A stretch of 23,898 nucleotides of DNA from a virus. Below are positions 8,648-19,556 of this stretch, piece after piece; the first letter of the stretch is position 1, and each line of letters begins with the position of its first letter. Below the pieces are notes generated by a model, which saw only the letters and a program-made list of their open reading frames with translations, did no database searches and had not been told where the DNA came from. The stretch covers positions 41,771 to 65,668 of IMG/VR virus record IMGVR_UViG_3300030329_002226. The stretch is one strand, 5' to 3'. Position numbers and translations under genes: made by a program.

Positions 8648-8911
8648 ATGAAAAAACCACAAATTAAAACCAAAACAAGTACTAATGAACTACAAACTAA
8701 AAGGTTTGTTATTAGAAAATCATTAATAGGTTCAAATACAATTATAGTATTTATGAATCATAAAAATGAAGAATGTCGATACAATCATGACTTAGTATAC
8801 AATCAATTAAAAGATAAATTCGAGTCAATGAATTGTTTCCAGAAGTACAAAAGTTATACTAATTCTAAAAATCTACCTAAATTTGTTAGAGAATTAAAAT
8901 CAATAGTATAA
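8648..8911 (+). CDS. Small early protein, 87 aa, paralogue of the gene at 9754
   Basis: The protein is basic and contains TKRFVIRKSLIGSNTI, YNHDLVYNQLKDKF and LPKFVRELKSIV. These segments recur nearly intact in the 82-aa protein encoded at 9754-10002, so the two are clear paralogues. Conserved positions include the RFVIRKSLIG block, the C-x-YNHD-x-VYNQLK block and a C-F-x-K-Y motif. There is no signal peptide, membrane segment or known domain. It forms a stand-alone unit with its own promoter (8575) and a UUCG terminator (8919). The ATG at 8648 is chosen for its TTAACTATG context, shared with neighbouring starts. A host-takeover role is only inferred from the early position. Confidence 0.75.
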   Translation: MKKPQIKTKTSTNELQTKRFVIRKSLIGSNTIIVFMNHKNEECRYNHDLVYNQLKDKFESMNCFQKYKSYTNSKNLPKFVRELKSIV

Positions 8912-9753: not shown

Positions 9754-10002
9754 ATGAAGACTAAAATTAAATTAAATCAACTAGCAACAAAGAGATTTGT
9801 TATTAGAAAATCATTAATTGGTAAAAACACAGTAATAACTTTTACTAATAAGAAAAATGAGAAATGTACTTATAATCATGACATAGTATATAATCAACTA
9901 AAAACTAAGTTTGATAATATGATGTGTTTTAATAAGTATGGTAATTATACTAACACTAATAACCTTCCAAGGTTTGTTAGAGAATTAGATAAAATAGTAT
10001 AA
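9754..10002 (+). CDS. Small early protein, 82 aa, paralogue of the gene at 8648
   Basis: It carries TKRFVIRKSLIGKNTVITF, YNHDIVYNQLKTKF and LPRFVRELDKIV, matching the 87-aa protein in order and spacing; only the extreme N-terminus and a few loop residues differ. The duplicate also keeps the promoter-gene-terminator layout, so the whole cassette seems to have been duplicated and then diverged. No known domain is seen; basic composition with conserved Arg/Lys suggests nucleic-acid or protein binding. The start context is ACACTATG. Confidence 0.75.
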   Translation: MKTKIKLNQLATKRFVIRKSLIGKNTVITFTNKKNEKCTYNHDIVYNQLKTKFDNMMCFNKYGNYTNTNNLPRFVRELDKIV

Positions 10003-10789: not shown

Positions 10790-10863
10790 TGAAAGACGTA
10801 AGACGAGGTGCACTTATTAAAGTAGTGGTAACACGGCGCGGGTTGATTAGCTAAAACAACTAA
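10790..10863 (+). other. GC-richer spacer with small hairpins
   Basis: This 74-nt gap contains GTGCACTT/AAGTAGTG-type pairing, an ACACGGCGCGGG block and a GTTG...CAAC hairpin around TTAGCTAA. It is clearly richer in G and C than the flanking genes, which in this genome marks structured RNA. It may be a 3' UTR hairpin or terminator lacking a T-tract, or a small RNA. No tRNA cloverleaf could be drawn. Confidence 0.3.
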
Positions 10864-10894
10864 CACGGACTTATAAACAAAAACTTTAGATAAT
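10864..10894 (+). promoter_or_regulatory. Early promoter copy 6, predicted leaderless
   Basis: CACGGACTTATA at 10864 and GATAAT at 10889, then six bases and ATG at 10901. With normal -10 to +1 spacing the transcript would start on the A of the start codon. Confidence 0.7.
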
Positions 10895-10900
10895 ATTAAT

Positions 10901-11131
10901 ATGGAAAATTTATATGAACAATTATTACCTGATGTTAAGTTTGAACTTAAGAAAAATAAAGGTAAATATAAAAATGCAGTGAAGCAAGTGATTGCTAAAC
11001 TACACGTCTATCATAACTACTCACAGATGAGTATGGATGATATTAAAACTTTAATAACTTTTTCTGATACTAACTGTTACGAGTGGACAGCGAGTGATTG
11101 GAAATATGGAGAAAAACTATTTAAACAATGA
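10901..11131 (+). CDS. Small basic protein, 76 aa, probably from a leaderless mRNA
   Basis: The start codon lies exactly 6 nt after the GATAAT box of promoter copy 6, so no ribosome binding site is possible upstream on that transcript. The product (MENLYEQLLPDVKFELKKNK ...) has a Lys-rich N-terminal half and a Trp-containing C-terminus (CYEWTASDWKYGEKLF). The last codons overlap the next gene by 4 nt (ATGA). No known family is recognised. Confidence 0.7.
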   Translation: MENLYEQLLPDVKFELKKNKGKYKNAVKQVIAKLHVYHNYSQMSMDDIKTLITFSDTNCYEWTASDWKYGEKLFKQ

Positions 11132-11280
11132 AGCATAAAGTATTTATTAAAATAACAGATATACTAATAAAATCATTAGTGGCAAGTCTTGCCGCTCTAT
11201 TTGTAGCTGGTTGGTTATTTTTGGTATTTGGTTTTATATCAGGTGTCATTGAACCACCTTCATTTGGTATATATAAATAG
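11128..11280 (+). CDS. Small single-pass membrane protein, 50 aa
   Basis: A 51-codon frame starts in ATGA overlap with the upstream gene and stops at TAG 11278-11280, immediately before the structured RNA locus. A basic N-terminus (MKHKVFIKITDILIK) precedes a hydrophobic helix at about residues 17-40 (SLVASLAALFVAGWLFLVFG), then a short polar tail. I infer an inner-membrane protein with N-in topology by the positive-inside rule. Small membrane proteins in phage early regions can affect superinfection or host physiology, but no specific function can be assigned. Confidence 0.65.
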   Translation: MKHKVFIKITDILIKSLVASLAALFVAGWLFLVFGFISGVIEPPSFGIYK

Positions 11281-11637
11281 TATTAGACGAGTAGCTTAAT
11301 AGGATTATTGGAAGTTAGCGCGTAAATCTGCAAGACAGTAGCTCACTAACTCATATATAATCACGTAAGTGAATTGCTAATACTAAACCGGAAGCGCACC
11401 GCTATCTGACGAGATTGACCAGGGAATCCCATGGTAATATCTCCGGACGATATGAGCGACTCGAGGTTGGTAGGTTGTGGTTGAACCAGTAAACGTTTTC
11501 ACGAGCTGGTTACTACAACCGATAACTAGGTTTGGATATTGGAGAAGGCATAAGACTCGGCGGGAGTATTCCTCAGAGCGCTGATTATCCCAATAACTAC
11601 TGACGAGTAAAGAGGTTCGATTCCTCTTCTAGTTACT
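11281..11637 (+). ncRNA. Large structured RNA with tRNA-like 3' end
   Basis: This 350-nt gene-free stretch is markedly richer in G+C than the flanking genes and full of pairings. The T-arm is AGAGG-TTCGATT-CCTCT (11611-11627), followed by acceptor strand TCTAGTT (11628-11634), which pairs over 7 bp with AACTAGG (11524-11530). The 5' region closes on the 3' region: AGTAG (11290-11294) plus TTATTGG (11305-11311) pair with CCAATAACTACT (11590-11601). Local helices are GTTAGCG/TTGCTAAT (11314-11320/11375-11381), TCAC-GTAA-GTGA (11361-11372, GNRA-type loop), AGCG-CAC-CGCT (11393-11403), GAGAT plus ACCAGGG with CCC-A-TGGT plus ATCTC (11411-11443), a 15-bp hairpin (11473-11520), ACTC/GAGT (11555-11567) and TCAG/CTGA (11573-11584). 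I recognise no known family. Alternatives are a divergent GOLLD/ROOL-like RNA, or a class II tRNA carrying an intron. Confidence 0.65.
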
Positions 11638-11649
11638 AAATTATAAATT

Positions 11650-12039
11650 ATGAATTGGAAACAAGAACAAGAAGTATTGGAAAATGCTTTTGCAAGAAGA
11701 TTACTAATTGAATATGGTATTCAAGAAGTAACTACGCAAAGACAAGCTAAGAATGGTACAAGAGAATTTGAATTTCCTGTATCTGCTCACAAGCAATGGA
11801 ATAGGAAAGATAGACTTAGATTAGCTTGTTTTAAAACAGGATATGTAAGAAATCAAAATTCTTGCGCATCTCCTTATCAACTAAATCCTCAATATAAAAG
11901 AACAAAGAAATGGGTTTTCTTAACTAAAGATGGATTAAAAACTAAAGAATACATAACAATTTCGCGAGCAAAGATCTATTCAGGTATGGCTCGATTAGTT
12001 TTTATGTTAGAATTTTATAAAAGAAATTATAAGATATGA
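11650..12039 (+). CDS. Hypothetical basic protein, 129 aa
   Basis: It starts MNWKQEQEVLENAFARRLLI in an AAATTATG context right after the structured RNA. The sequence is basic with several Trp/Arg/Lys patches (KQWNRKDRLRLACFKTGYVR, QYKRTKKWVFLTKDG), suggesting RNA or DNA binding. Two Cys residues do not form a zinc site on their own. The end overlaps the next gene by 4 nt (ATGA). Its place next to the RNA locus makes an RNA-binding role tempting, but that is speculation. No known family is recognised. Confidence 0.65.
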   Translation: MNWKQEQEVLENAFARRLLIEYGIQEVTTQRQAKNGTREFEFPVSAHKQWNRKDRLRLACFKTGYVRNQNSCASPYQLNPQYKRTKKWVFLTKDGLKTKEYITISRAKIYSGMARLVFMLEFYKRNYKI

Positions 12040-12562: not shown

Positions 12563-12780
12563 ATCTACTGGAGTTTTTCATAGTTATAACAGTAGATTAG
12601 GTCTGTACAGACAACAGAGCGTGCTACGGTACTAAGGTGCGGGTTCGATTCCCGCCACGCTCTCTAATGGGTAAAAGATAAGAGTATGAAAAACCTCAAA
12701 TAAGTTTATCCAACCGCATATGTATGTGGTGTCGAAGATTTGATCACTGGTACGTACGGAAGTGTATTACATATTGCGGT
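12562..12780 (+). ncRNA. Structured RNA with predicted kissing loops
   Basis: Hairpin 1 pairs AATCTACTG (12562-12570) with CAGTAGATT (12590-12598). A GTCTG-TA-CAGAC hairpin follows (12601-12612), then the armless tRNA-like element (12617-12663). Hairpin 3 pairs GGGTAAA (12669-12675) with TTTATCC (12705-12711). Loop 1 (GAGTTTTTCATA, 12571-12582) is complementary to loop 3 (TATGAAAAACCTC, 12685-12697) over 12 bp with one bulged C, a kissing interaction. Then ACCGCAT pairs with ATGTGGT (12713-12719/12724-12730) or alternatively ACCGCA with TGCGGT (12775-12780). No ORF fits. ATATTGCGG is repeated at 12771 and 12785, the second copy entering the tRNA-Met acceptor stem. Confidence 0.6.
12617..12663 (+). 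ncRNA. Armless tRNA-like element (acceptor stem plus T-arm)
   Basis: GAGCGTG (12617-12623) pairs over 7 bp with CACGCTC (12656-12662). The T-arm is GCGGG-TTCGATT-CCCGC (12639-12655) and the discriminator is T12663. Only 15 nt (CTACGGTACTAAGGT) replace the D- and anticodon arms, so it cannot be a normal decoding tRNA. It could be a deletion relic of a tRNA or a selected tRNA mimic and processing signal within the surrounding RNA. Confidence 0.6.
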
Positions 12781-12787
12781 AAAATAT

Positions 12788-12860
12788 TGCGGGATAGAGC
12801 AGTGGCCAGCTCGCGAGCCTCATAAGCTCGAGGTCGTAGGTTCGAATCCTACTCCCGCAA
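12788..12860 (+). tRNA. tRNA-Met (anticodon CAT)
   Basis: A full 73-nt cloverleaf is present. The acceptor is TGCGGGA/TCCCGCA with discriminator A12860. The D-arm is GAGC-AGTGGCCA-GCTC, the anticodon arm CGAGC-CTCATAA-GCTCG, the variable loop AGGTC and the T-arm GTAGG-TTCGAAT-CCTAC. The anticodon is CAT (12821-12823). CCA is not encoded (CTA follows). CAT may mean elongator Met, initiator Met or lysidine-modified Ile. The T1-A72 first pair is unpaired-like weak rather than the C-A mismatch of bacterial initiators, and the three G-C anticodon-stem pairs of initiators are not present as a block, so elongator Met or tRNA-Ile2 is more likely. Confidence 0.95.
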
Positions 12861-12875
12861 CTAAATAAATAAATT

Positions 12876-14847: not shown

Positions 14848-15468
14848 ATGTCACACGAAAGAAACATGAAATGGTTAAATGATAGACAAATTATTTATAG
14901 AAGAGATCCTATTAATGATAAACCTACTATTGAGACAGATACATATAGATATTATGAGCAAGGCACACATGAATGTTATACACTATTTAACACCAGTGCT
15001 AAAATACCTACTTATAAATCATTAAAATGGCATTTTCTTGTATTATACTATTTAAATAGTGACATTTTGTCACCTGAAGAAGAGATAATAACTTTATTTA
15101 AATTTATAGCTAAAAAAGAGAATGGATTTGTTACATTTTTTATTAGTAAACAAAAACTAGAAGAAATAATACAAAACGTACTGACAATAGGTGGTGAACC
15201 ACCAATAAATAGAAAAAGAAAAATAATATTTAAAGACTTTACAGGATTATCTACTAAAGAAAAACTATCAATTGTAGGAAAATTAATAGGTAGATCAAGC
15301 ATAGATAAAGAAATGATATATGAAACTATGTTAGATTTAAATGACTGGGGTAAGAAAATTACTATTAGTCGTATTGCTGGTTTACTTAATTGTTCCGTGA
15401 GAACAATACATAGAAATATGGGAGATGAATTAAAACGAGAAAAAGTAAGATTAAATGAAGAAATATAA
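14848..15468 (+). CDS. Putative HTH transcription regulator, 206 aa
   Basis: The C-terminal 40 residues contain ITISRIAGLLNCSVRTIHRN (about 171-190), a well-formed helix-turn-helix of the type found in response-regulator and sigma region 4-like domains. The N-terminal part (RDPINDKPTIETDTYRYYEQ, then a hydrophobic stretch near 60-80) is mixed alpha/beta and resembles plasmid or phage replication regulators only vaguely. It overlaps the sigma-factor gene by 14 nt, which implies translational coupling and a joint role in transcription switching or replication initiation. The upstream palindrome at 14788 could be its operator. The HTH is firm; the partner and target DNA are not known. Confidence 0.65.
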   Translation: MSHERNMKWLNDRQIIYRRDPINDKPTIETDTYRYYEQGTHECYTLFNTSAKIPTYKSLKWHFLVLYYLNSDILSPEEEIITLFKFIAKKENGFVTFFISKQKLEEIIQNVLTIGGEPPINRKRKIIFKDFTGLSTKEKLSIVGKLIGRSSIDKEMIYETMLDLNDWGKKITISRIAGLLNCSVRTIHRNMGDELKREKVRLNEEI

Positions 15469-16216
15469 CGTAAACAATTACATTAGATATAAAGAAGATT
15501 TAAAAGAATCTTTAAAAAATATACCCGATTATGGAGACGACTATCATAAATATACTAGAAAGCAACTTATAATTAGATTTTTACCATTAGTAGAAACAAT
15601 GTCAAGAAAGTTCTCAACAGATAGTAGAGCTTCTGGTGTGTTAACTATAATGGATTTAATACAAGCAGGTTCAGAAGGACTTACTAGAGCAGTAGATAAA
15701 TTAGATTGGGAAACTCTTAGTCAATCACAAGATAAAGAAAAAACTTTAAAAGCTTTTTTTAGTAAAAGAATAAAAGGAAATATAAGAAGAAGAATAGATA
15801 TGATGAGAGGTAATATGAGAATACCTGAACATAAACTAAATGAAATACGTAGTAATCCTAAAGATAAAAAAATGGTATCAATGTTTTTTAATAGTATATT
15901 TTTATCTATAGATGCTAAACCAGAAACAGATGAGAACATGTTATATCAAATACCAGATAAATCTGAACCTTATAATATTCCTTTATTAAATATTTATTTA
16001 AAAAGTTTAATGCAGAAATATTTAGAAAAAAATGAATATGAAGTATTACGATTAAGTTATGGTTTAGACTGTGATAAACACTCTGCTAAAGATATAGCTA
16101 ACAAGTTAAATATATTAGGACCAAGTGCTTATGTTAGAATTTCAGAACTAAAAAAGCAAGCGGTTCAAAAACTTATAGATAATGTAGATCACTCGCAAGT
16201 GATTGATTATCTGTAA
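15455..16216 (+). CDS. Sigma70-family RNA polymerase sigma factor, 253 aa
   Basis: Region 2 spans about residues 38-127. It has RFLPLVETMSRKF as 2.1, LTIMDLIQAGSEGLTRAVDK as the core-binding 2.2 segment, then FFSKRIKGNIRRRIDMMRG for 2.3-2.4, the -10 recognition and melting part. Region 4 is at about 191-240, with an HTH around SAKDIANKLNILGPSAYVRI. Regions 1.1 and a full region 3 are absent, as in small group 3-like or phage sigma factors. It should bind host core RNA polymerase and redirect it to phage promoters; candidates are the CACGGACTTA/GATAAT elements or an unseen late promoter. It overlaps the HTH gene and precedes the recombination operon. Confidence 0.88.
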   Translation: MKKYNVNNYIRYKEDLKESLKNIPDYGDDYHKYTRKQLIIRFLPLVETMSRKFSTDSRASGVLTIMDLIQAGSEGLTRAVDKLDWETLSQSQDKEKTLKAFFSKRIKGNIRRRIDMMRGNMRIPEHKLNEIRSNPKDKKMVSMFFNSIFLSIDAKPETDENMLYQIPDKSEPYNIPLLNIYLKSLMQKYLEKNEYEVLRLSYGLDCDKHSAKDIANKLNILGPSAYVRISELKKQAVQKLIDNVDHSQVIDYL

Positions 16217-17843: not shown

Positions 17844-19556
17844 ATGATAGAACAAAACGAGATTAATGGATTTTTGATTGATAAGTTCAATCAACATAAC
17901 TTAGAAGTTGGGAAGAAACAAGGGATTTGTCCTTTGTGCTCACATACTAGGAAACCTCAGAATAAGAAAGCTAAATGTTGTTCTTATGATTGGGAACGGG
18001 GTCTCGGAACTTGTCATAACTGTAATTCTACATTTCAACTCCATACATATCAACGTAAAGGAGCTAGTGATAAAGAATATACTAGACCAGTAATAACTAA
18101 ATACTTGCCAGTTAAGGATAAAGTTACTACATGGTTTGAAAAAAGAGGGATATCTCAAAGGACTTTGGACGACCTTAAAGTTGGTCAAGGTCCTGAGTAT
18201 ATGCCACAGACTGGCAAAGAAGAGAATACCATTCAATTTAACTATATAATAGGTGATCAACTTATTAATGTTAAATATAGAGATGGTAGAAAGAACTTTA
18301 AATTATATAAAGGAGCAGAAAAAGTATTTTATAATATTAATAGTATTGTAGGGTATGACAATTGCGTTATAACTGAAGGTGAAATGGATGTATTAGCATT
18401 ACATGAAGCTGGTGTTACTAATGTTATTTCAGTTCCTAATGGCGCAACATTACATCATAACAATTTAGATTATCTTGATAATTGTATAGACTATTTTGAA
18501 GATAAACAAAAAATAATATTAGCATTAGATACCGACGAACCTGGATTAGCATTACGAAGAGAATTAGTTAGAAGACTAGGAGCTGAAGTATGTTACTTAA
18601 TTGATTTTGAAGAATGTAAAGACGCTAATGAATACTTAATAAAACATGGCAAAGAAAAACTTAAAGAAACAATCCAAAAAGCAAGAGCATATCCACTCGA
18701 AAATGTCACAACGTTCAAAGATATTGAAGGAGACGTTAAAGACTTTGTCACAAACGGATTCAAACCAGGATTCCAAATCGGTTTACCAAACTTTGATAGA
18801 ATATTTTCAACGTATACCGGGCAGTTCATTACTGTTACTGGCATACCTTCTAGCGGTAAGTCTGATTTTGTTGACCAAATGGTTGTAGGATATAATAAAC
18901 TATATGGTTGGAGAACAGGATTTGCATCACCAGAAAATGCTCCTAATTATTTACATGCTCATAAGTTAATGAGAAAAGTTTGGGGTGATATGCCTCAACG
19001 AGATGATATTGGAGGTTCTAAATGGGATGAGGTAGCAAATCATGTTAATGATAATTTCTTTTTTATTGATATGGAGAAATACACATTAGAATCTGTATTA
19101 AGAAAAGGAGCTGAACTTGTTAAACGTAAAGGTATTAAATGTTTGGTTATTGACCCTTTTAATAAAGTTAGAGATAAGAATGCTTCATCAATAGATGTTA
19201 ATATATATACTATGGAATATCTAACTAAAATAGAAACATTTGCAAAGAAATATGATGTGTTAGTATTTATTGTAGCGCATCCAACTAAAATGTATAAAGA
19301 TAAAGATGGGAAAATCGAAGAACCTAATATGTATAACATTAAAGGTGGAGGAGAGTGGTATGACGCGAGTTATCACGGCATTCTTGTACACCGCGATTAT
19401 ATACTCAAGAACACGAAGGTCAAAGTACTCAAGGTCAAATTCCAAAATTTAGGAGAAAATGGAGGAGAATGCTTTTTTACTTGGGAACCTAAATCAGGTA
19501 GTTTTATTCCTCAAGTTACTGATGAATTAGAATTAGAAAAAATGCCATGGGAATAA
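17844..19556 (+). CDS. T7 gp4-like primase-helicase, 570 aa
   Basis: Domains in order: a zinc-binding domain with C29-x2-C32 and C57-x2-C60 (CHNC); a TOPRIM primase core with ITEGEMD (Glu178) and LALDTDEPG (Asp229, Asp231); a linker; and a RecA/DnaB-type helicase with Walker A GIPSSGKS (333-340), a Walker B-like CLVIDPFN (433-440) and a VAHPTK motif (His479). The length matches T7 gp4 and Twinkle. It makes RNA primers and unwinds the replication fork as a ring hexamer. It follows the SSB gene by 3 nt. An internal start for a helicase-only form, as in T7 gp4B, cannot be confirmed. A DNA polymerase partner is not in the window. Confidence 0.95.
   Translation: MIEQNEINGFLIDKFNQHNLEVGKKQGICPLCSHTRKPQNKKAKCCSYDWERGLGTCHNCNSTFQLHTYQRKGASDKEYTRPVITKYLPVKDKVTTWFEKRGISQRTLDDLKVGQGPEYMPQTGKEENTIQFNYIIGDQLINVKYRDGRKNFKLYKGAEKVFYNINSIVGYDNCVITEGEMDVLALHEAGVTNVISVPNGATLHHNNLDYLDNCIDYFEDKQKIILALDTDEPGLALRRELVRRLGAEVCYLIDFEECKDANEYLIKHGKEKLKETIQKARAYPLENVTTFKDIEGDVKDFVTNGFKPGFQIGLPNFDRIFSTYTGQFITVTGIPSSGKSDFVDQMVVGYNKLYGWRTGFASPENAPNYLHAHKLMRKVWGDMPQRDDIGGSKWDEVANHVNDNFFFIDMEKYTLESVLRKGAELVKRKGIKCLVIDPFNKVRDKNASSIDVNIYTMEYLTKIETFAKKYDVLVFIVAHPTKMYKDKDGKIEEPNMYNIKGGGEWYDASYHGILVHRDYILKNTKVKVLKVKFQNLGENGGECFFTWEPKSGSFIPQVTDELELEKMPWE

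What the first reader, a model, noticed from the sequence alone, without database searches (positions are those of the whole stretch)
11281..11637. Large ornate RNA with tRNA-like 3' end in a gene-free gap
A 350-nt GC-richer island in an AT-rich early region can be folded with many exact helices. They include a 15-bp hairpin (11473-11520), a GNRA-type hairpin (11361-11372), a branched domain (11389-11447), and a long-range 12-bp closure between 11290-11311 and 11590-11601. The 3' end is a real T-arm plus a 7-bp acceptor stem. Hairpin TACT-GACG-AGTA (11598-11609) competes with the long-range helix, suggesting two states. It is not a recognisable tmRNA, group I intron or RNase P RNA. By analogy with large phage-borne RNAs found near tRNAs (GOLLD, ROOL), it may be an undescribed member or a new class.
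Basis: partly seen in the sequence, partly recalled or inferred. Interest (0 to 1): 0.78.

Follow-up and report, generated by a model that had tools for sequence, protein, structure and literature searches.

The report
Phage RNA built from interchangeable modules
This marine phage carries a 360-base folded RNA ending in a tRNA look-alike, and its relatives carry the same frames with different folded pieces plugged in, a swap-the-parts RNA system that I could not find described anywhere and whose job is still unknown.

Summary
Window 11278-11639 folds into a 5' domain (S5), two middle hairpin modules and a 3' tRNA-like domain (TLS-a). No Rfam family, tRNA or tmRNA model matches it. S5 occurs in about 65 distinct versions in viral contigs, TLS-a in 57, and a third frame (TLS-b) in 90. 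TLS-b is the tRNA-like end of tmRNA with the message region deleted. The frames have slots: 155 distinct inserts in three slots form 71 sequence clusters, and 11 clusters occur in two or more kinds of slot. Insert cores stay nearly constant while the stems joining them to the frame change on both sides at once (0 of 2000 permutations as good in S5 and TLS-b). Every testable S5 (63 of 63) lies just upstream of a tRNA or tRNA-like T-arm (control 11%). TLS-b keeps the alanine signal G3·U70 in 88 of 90.

Likely mechanism: host tRNA-processing enzymes cut the RNA out of the early transcript, and the swappable caps do the work. Function is inferred, not shown.

The parts
11278..11385 (+). S5 5' domain: closing stem 11278-11286/11377-11385; core helix CTTA 11295-11298/TAAG 11366-11369 between conserved internal loops (GACGAGTAG ... 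TGAAT); slot between 11300 and 11362
   Evidence: About 65 distinct S5 versions; core pair C-G in 44 and G-C in 16, 60/60 paired; coordinates
11303..11362 (+). Cap module M1 in the S5 slot, with linker stem GATTAT/ATAATC and core TGGAAGTTAGCGCGTAAATCTGCAAGACAGTAGCTCACTAACTCATAT
   Evidence: Core 94-100% identical in L125, L126, L151, L162, L172, L180, L186 with six different, always paired linkers
11386..11470 (+). Module M20, hinge AGCGC (11393-11397) with GCGaCT (11456-11461), inner stem TATC/GATA (11403-11406/11449-11452)
   Evidence: Shared with L004, L105, L150, L234; two double compensatory changes in L234
11411..11443 (+). Module M14 (CCAGGGAATCCCATGG, 11419-11434) nested inside M20 with its own linker GAGAT/ATCTC
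   Evidence: Same 16-mer in L004, L091, L108, L150 in other contexts; absent from M20 of L105 and L234
11473..11520 (+). Hairpin carrying module M2 (GTAAACGTTTTCACGAGC)
   Evidence: Exact core in 24 viral stretches; caps TLS-a in many relatives
11524..11635 (+). TLS-a tRNA-like domain: acceptor AACTAGG 11524-11530/TCTAGTT 11628-11634, GG-containing D-loop-like stretch, cap, variable-arm-like hairpin, T-arm, discriminator A11635
   Evidence: 57 distinct TLS-a; acceptor types AACTAG, AGCTAG, GACTAG, AACTAA, GGCTAG; not called by ARAGORN or Rfam
11537..11595 (+). Cap of TLS-a: linker TATTGG/CCAATA, outer module GGAGAAGGCATAA...CTGATTATCCC, nested M22 (11552-11579)
   Evidence: M22 is in the S5 slot of L150; outer module with other contents in L105 and L189
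11598..11609 (+). Variable-arm-like hairpin TACT-GACG-AGTA
   Evidence: 51-53 of 53 relatives paired at each position, with C-G/T-A/A-T changes
11611..11627 (+). T-arm AGAGG-TTCGATT-CCTCT
11636..11639 (+). Conserved trailer CTAA directly after the discriminator, also found after the phage's real tRNA
   Evidence: A-C[T/A]A in 56 of 57 TLS-a-type and 87 of 90 TLS-b-type tails; also after tRNA-Met
12617..12663 (+). Mini-TLS: acceptor GAGCGTG/CACGCTC, connector CTACGGTACTAAGGT, T-arm GCGGGTTCGATTCCCGC
   Evidence: GAGCGTG here, GAGCATA/TATGCTC in L003 and L004; in L131 and L135 the same mini-TLS sits inside the S5 slot
12714..12779 (+). Further hairpin module of the same set (CCGCATATGTATGTGGTGTCGA...GTACGGAAGTGTATTACATATTGCGG)
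   Evidence: Related pieces in S5 and TLS-b slots of L058, L098, L101, L108
12788..12861 (+). Genuine tRNA-Met(CAT), initiator-like by sequence
   Evidence: ARAGORN and Rfam 69.7 bits; initiator assignment is by eye

Best explanation
A family of modular phage noncoding RNAs. Fixed frames (S5, TLS-a, TLS-b, mini-TLS) present interchangeable folded caps. Shown by sequence comparison: the frames, slots, caps, covarying linker stems, and the constant position of S5 just upstream of a tRNA or tRNA-like domain. Inferred: the island is transcribed within the early operon; the tRNA-like domain is treated as a tRNA, with RNase P cutting before 11524 and a 3' tRNA nuclease cutting after A11635. This frees the S5-M20-M2 RNA (about 11278-11523), a separate capped tRNA-like RNA (11524-11635) and the downstream mRNA. 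The caps are the working parts, recognised by host factors, and phages re-equip by swapping caps on constant frames. The most likely use is as decoys or ligands for the translation machinery or for host RNA-targeting defences. The tRNA-like end gives defined ends, stability and, in TLS-b, probable charging with alanine.
For: 155 distinct inserts in three slots form 71 clusters, 11 of them in two or more slot types. Insert-base stems pair within an element (6.14 bp in S5, 5.29 in TLS-b) far better than between elements (2.81, 2.53); 0 of 2000 permutations. M1 and M4 cores keep their sequence while linkers differ and still pair. 63 of 63 testable S5 are followed by a T-arm within 700 nt (53 TLS, 10 tRNAs), control 212 of 2000. 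TLS-b ends a median 21 nt before the next ORF. TLS-b G3.U70 88/90 and A73 89/90 although pair 4-69 takes all four Watson-Crick types. Shared C[T/A]A trailer with the real tRNAs. TLS-b matches the tmRNA model.
Against: No expression or processing data. TLS-a lacks the G3.U70 signal and any hit to tRNA or tmRNA models, so charging of the window's own element is not suggested. TLS-a ends a median 101 nt before the next ORF, so tight punctuation is clearer for TLS-b than for TLS-a. Insert pairing in the TLS-a slot is weak (3.10 against 2.62 bp). No evidence bears directly on what the caps bind.
Confidence: 0.5

Rival explanations
1. tRNA-style punctuation only: the tRNA-like domains are cutting signals that separate mRNAs of a crowded early operon, and the S5 and cap structures are mere spacers or stabilisers of mRNA ends.
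For: TLS-b and mini-TLS end a median 21-29 nt before the next ORF; the S5 stem overlaps the stop codon of the upstream ORF; S5 is always upstream of a T-arm.
Against: Spacers need not keep 40-60 nt cores nearly identical while linkers change, nor keep an alanine identity pair.
Confidence: 0.2
2. Selfish hairpin elements: caps are tiny mobile palindromic elements that insert into the loops of other hairpins, like mitochondrial double-hairpin elements.
For: Nested insertion (M14 in M20; M13 within a longer TLS-b cap in L231), full and empty versions of M20 (W against L105).
Against: No target duplications or transposase were seen; linkers differ in sequence but stay paired, which selection on RNA explains and plain insertion does not; caps sit in specific slots of constant frames; G3.U70 selection shows RNA-level function.
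Confidence: 0.12
3. A structural RNA that assembles into a cage or multimer, as GOLLD and ROOL do, with caps as assembly contacts.
For: Same setting: phage-borne, large, ornate, beside a tRNA; GOLLD env-38 lies downstream of a Met tRNA in marine data (PMC12286853).
Against: No sequence match to GOLLD or ROOL models; caps vary freely, which is hard on a fixed assembly; the RNA is about half the size.
Confidence: 0.08
4. A tRNA gene interrupted by an intron (for example group I).
For: T-arm, acceptor stem, A73 and a class-II-like variable hairpin; a resemblance of 11543-11575 to group I intron ends noticed by eye.
Against: No anticodon arm is apparent in the 57 relatives; the insert position holds unrelated caps. 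ARAGORN and Rfam find no tRNA or intron here.
Confidence: 0.02

Closest known systems
tmRNA (Rfam RF00023), tRNA-like domain
   Same: TLS-b, the sister frame, matches both ends of the model (63.9-69.4 bits in several loci; E 1e-12 to 1e-15 in others) and keeps G3.U70 and A73
   Different: About 300 nt of message and pseudoknots are missing and replaced by a cap; TLS-a, the frame in this window, does not match tmRNA at all
GOLLD and ROOL RNAs
   Same: Large ornate phage RNAs of unknown function, often near tRNAs (PMC12286853)
   Different: No sequence or structure match; smaller, and built of exchangeable modules
tRNA punctuation, as in mitochondria
   Same: tRNA-shaped signal directly between co-directional genes
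   Different: Variable caps and the S5 domain have no counterpart there (own knowledge)
Mitochondrial double-hairpin elements
   Same: Short hairpin units, nesting (compare PMC5910586, PMC2800124, listed, not read)
   Different: Here fixed slots in conserved frames and compensating linkers argue for selection on the RNA

Membership tests
GOLLD / ROOL | Match to the Rfam covariance models | tested here: not met
   No hit in the window at gathering or at E up to 10 in 11150-11750; none in 23 relative and own-genome loci
GOLLD / ROOL | Phage-borne, large, near tRNA genes | tested here: met
   tRNA-Met 1.2 kb downstream; virus record
GOLLD / ROOL | RNA-only cage or multimer | not testable with these tools
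   Needs native gels or cryo-EM
tmRNA (window element, TLS-a) | Match to the tmRNA model | tested here: not met
tmRNA (sister frame TLS-b) | tRNA-like domain matching both model ends, with G3.U70 and A73 | tested here: met
   63.9-69.4 bits, model 1-374; 88/90 and 89/90
tmRNA (sister frame TLS-b) | Tag reading frame and pseudoknots | tested here: not met
   Alignment skips the roughly 300-nt middle; about 80 nt in total in L147
tRNA | Cloverleaf with D-stem and anticodon arm | tested here: not met
   Not called by ARAGORN or Rfam; the slot holds unrelated caps
tRNA | Acceptor plus T-arm with TTCRANN loop, A73 | tested here: met
Group I intron | Match to the group I intron model | tested here: not met
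   No match at E up to 10; a resemblance of 11543-11575 to an IC3 intron end was noticed by eye and dropped

The most novel reading that the evidence does not exclude
A combinatorial RNA-cassette system. Marine phages, probably of Bacteroidota, display exchangeable folded RNA caps on tRNA-like, tmRNA-derived and S5 frames, and rebuild this set by recombination as RNA decoys or ligands against host translation factors or RNA-targeting defences, the RNA counterpart of swapping protein domains on a phage tail fibre.
Probability: 0.3. Interest if true: 0.95.

Novelty: categorically new. Interest (0 to 1): 0.86.

Why it matters
Known large phage RNAs are single families with one architecture. Here RNA domains behave like exchangeable protein domains: one core, many mounts, with the mount stems changing in step. 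That offers dozens of naturally shuffled RNA modules for structure work. It also shows tRNA-like ends stripped of anticodon or message and reused as frames. If the caps bind host factors, they are leads to unknown phage-host contests fought with RNA. The novelty statement rests on Rfam 15 and the open-access papers I could search.

Tried and rejected
- Group I intron in a tRNA: suggested by eye, no Rfam support.
- Phage tmRNA with its tag: no hit for the window element; the tag-like string GCTTAATAG at about 11294-11302 lies in the S5 core.
- Cultured phages: the window element, the L108 composite and a TLS-b probe found nothing beyond T-arm-sized or shorter similarities, the best being tmRNA 3' ends of Streptomyces phages. 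No tRNA-like T-arm was found in the first 25 kb of Cellulophaga phage phi10:1.
- Bacterial genomes: seven matches to the 17-base S5 motif; only L189 has the 3' arm and a TLS, and it carries a phage gene like window ORF 10565, so it is probably a mis-binned phage contig. The other six look like chance.
- A fuzzy-regex module scan timed out and was replaced by blastn.
- Literature: searches on GOLLD/ROOL, phage tmRNA, tRNA-like and modular RNAs, and mobile hairpins found no description of this system.

Full report
What was checked. The window is bases 41771-65668 of a 67,276-base virus record. Around 11281-11637 the GC content rises to 0.42-0.47 against 0.20-0.31 nearby, and no ORF of 50 aa or more covers the gap between ORF 11128-11280 and ORF 11650-12039. 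The strand folds at -104.5 kcal/mol, z -2.63. Rfam finds only the tRNA at 12788-12860 in the window; in 11150-11750 nothing better than a chance CRISPR-repeat match appears even at E = 10. So the observation of a structured, unnamed RNA stands.

Relatives. A search with the primase-helicase (17844-19556) gave 80 related viral loci. The closest cultured relative by this protein is Cellulophaga phage phi10:1, at 42%, so the host is probably in the Bacteroidota. Blastn with the RNA found only its ends and pieces in these loci. Pattern scans for the 5' motif (73 stretches), the 3' end (36), one insert (7), a TLS-b end (50) and another insert (24) brought in the family. Of 38 helicase loci (the window included) with at least 8.3 kb upstream, 32 hold at least one element.

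Frames. S5 reads GACGAGTAG-CTTA-ATTAG [slot] ACA-TAAG-TGAAT inside a variable closing stem. The AGUA/GAA letters facing each other across its core are those of a bulged-G (loop E) motif; that is a reading by eye. TLS-a reads AACTAGGTATGG [slot] CTACTGACGAGTAT, T-arm, CTAGTT, A, C[T/A]AA. TLS-b reads GGGNGTGA...GG.TAG [slot] AAC, T-arm, CACNTCC, A, CTA. Mini-TLS have only a short GG-containing connector in place of the slot.

TLS-b as message-less tmRNA. Several TLS-b score 63.9-69.4 bits with Rfam tmRNA over both model ends with the middle missing. Others fall below the curated cut-off but at E = 1e-12 and 1e-14. Position 3-70 is G.U in 88 of 90 and the discriminator is A in 89 of 90, although position 4-69 takes all four Watson-Crick types. 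G3.U70 is the classical alanine identity of tRNA-Ala and tmRNA (established knowledge). A kept G.T mismatch would make no sense in a DNA hairpin, so selection acts on RNA.

Modules and slots. The window RNA is a patchwork. Its S5 slot holds M1; then follow M20 with M14 nested in it, the M2 hairpin, and TLS-a with M22 inside its cap. M1 lies in S5 here, in TLS-b of L125 and L126, and in two further contexts. M22 lies in S5 of L150. M2 caps TLS-a in many relatives. Over all loci, 155 distinct inserts from S5, TLS-a and TLS-b form 71 clusters (44 of them singletons), and 11 clusters occur in two or more slot types. The nearest helicase relatives with this region (L003 and L004, 84%) carry different caps, so caps do not follow the phage phylogeny closely.

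Covariation. At the insert bases the two sides of one element pair far better than sides taken from different elements: 6.14 against 2.81 bp in S5 and 5.29 against 2.53 in TLS-b, 0 of 2000 permutations each; in TLS-a 3.10 against 2.62, 1 of 2000. For M1 six different linkers and for M4 ten different linkers surround nearly constant cores and all pair. The S5 core pair is C-G in 44 and G-C in 16, never mixed. The small xxxx-GACG-xxxx hairpin pairs in 51-53 of 53 at each position, with changes on both sides. L234 carries a near copy of window 11378-11641 without S5, and in the M20 hinge two pairs change on both sides (sequences; pairs read by eye). Caveats: acceptor and T-stem pairing was used to find the TLS elements, so only their changes of type count as evidence; and related sequences are not independent.

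Corrected structure. Enforcing the comparative helices costs only about 3 kcal/mol (-102.4 against -105.5), and 55 of 77 of their pairs are already in the free minimum. Both have low predicted probability (0.20 and about 0.1).

Setting and mechanism. S5 is followed by a T-arm within 700 nt in all 63 testable cases (53 TLS, 10 true tRNAs; median 133 nt; two more are cut off by locus ends), against 212 of 2000 control stretches. TLS-b ends a median 21 nt before the next ORF. Real phage tRNAs and TLS share the C[T/A]A trailer. I therefore think the tRNA-like domains are cut by host tRNA-processing enzymes, releasing S5-type RNAs upstream and capped tRNA-like RNAs. The cutting is inferred. What the caps do is unknown; decoys or ligands for translation factors or RNA-targeting defences fit the constant cores, the swapping and the phage setting, but nothing here tests that.

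Novelty. No Rfam family matches S5 or TLS-a, and none of the papers found describes such a system. GOLLD and ROOL share only the setting. The library holds open-access papers only, so an undetected description is possible. I rate the architecture categorically new and the TLS-b frame on its own as a new variant of tmRNA.

Noticed in passing
12617-12663: A second tRNA-like element, a mini-TLS (acceptor plus GG connector plus T-arm, no anticodon arm), missed by ARAGORN; in L131 and L135 the same unit is plugged into the S5 slot.
   Followed up: partly
L106, L113, L117, L132, L133, L147: About 80-nt message-less tmRNAs (Rfam tmRNA 63.9-69.4 bits across model 1-374).
   Followed up: yes
12788-12861: tRNA-Met(CAT) that looks like an initiator tRNA by sequence; a tRNA-Met(CAT) recurs next to these RNAs in many relatives.
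   Followed up: partly
L233, L242, L243: A further TLS type (acceptor TAGCACGA/TCGTGCTA, T-arm GTGGGTTCGAGTCCCAC) also capped with M2; probably another frame class.
   Followed up: no
10790-10900: Gene gap with GC 0.35 and short hairpin-like pieces shared with five contigs; may be another member of the module set.
   Followed up: no
8648-8911 and 9754-10002: Two small ORFs are paralogues (shared TKRFVIRKSLIG...).
   Followed up: no
15455-16216: ORF with weak sigma-70 region 2 and 4 matches (Pfam E 0.004 and 0.09, below cut-off), a possible phage sigma factor.
   Followed up: no
L189 (JABSQH010000086.1): A 6.7-kb contig binned in an Ilumatobacteraceae MAG carries S5, TLS-a, TLS-b and a gene like window ORF 10565; it looks like a mis-binned phage contig.
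   Followed up: partly
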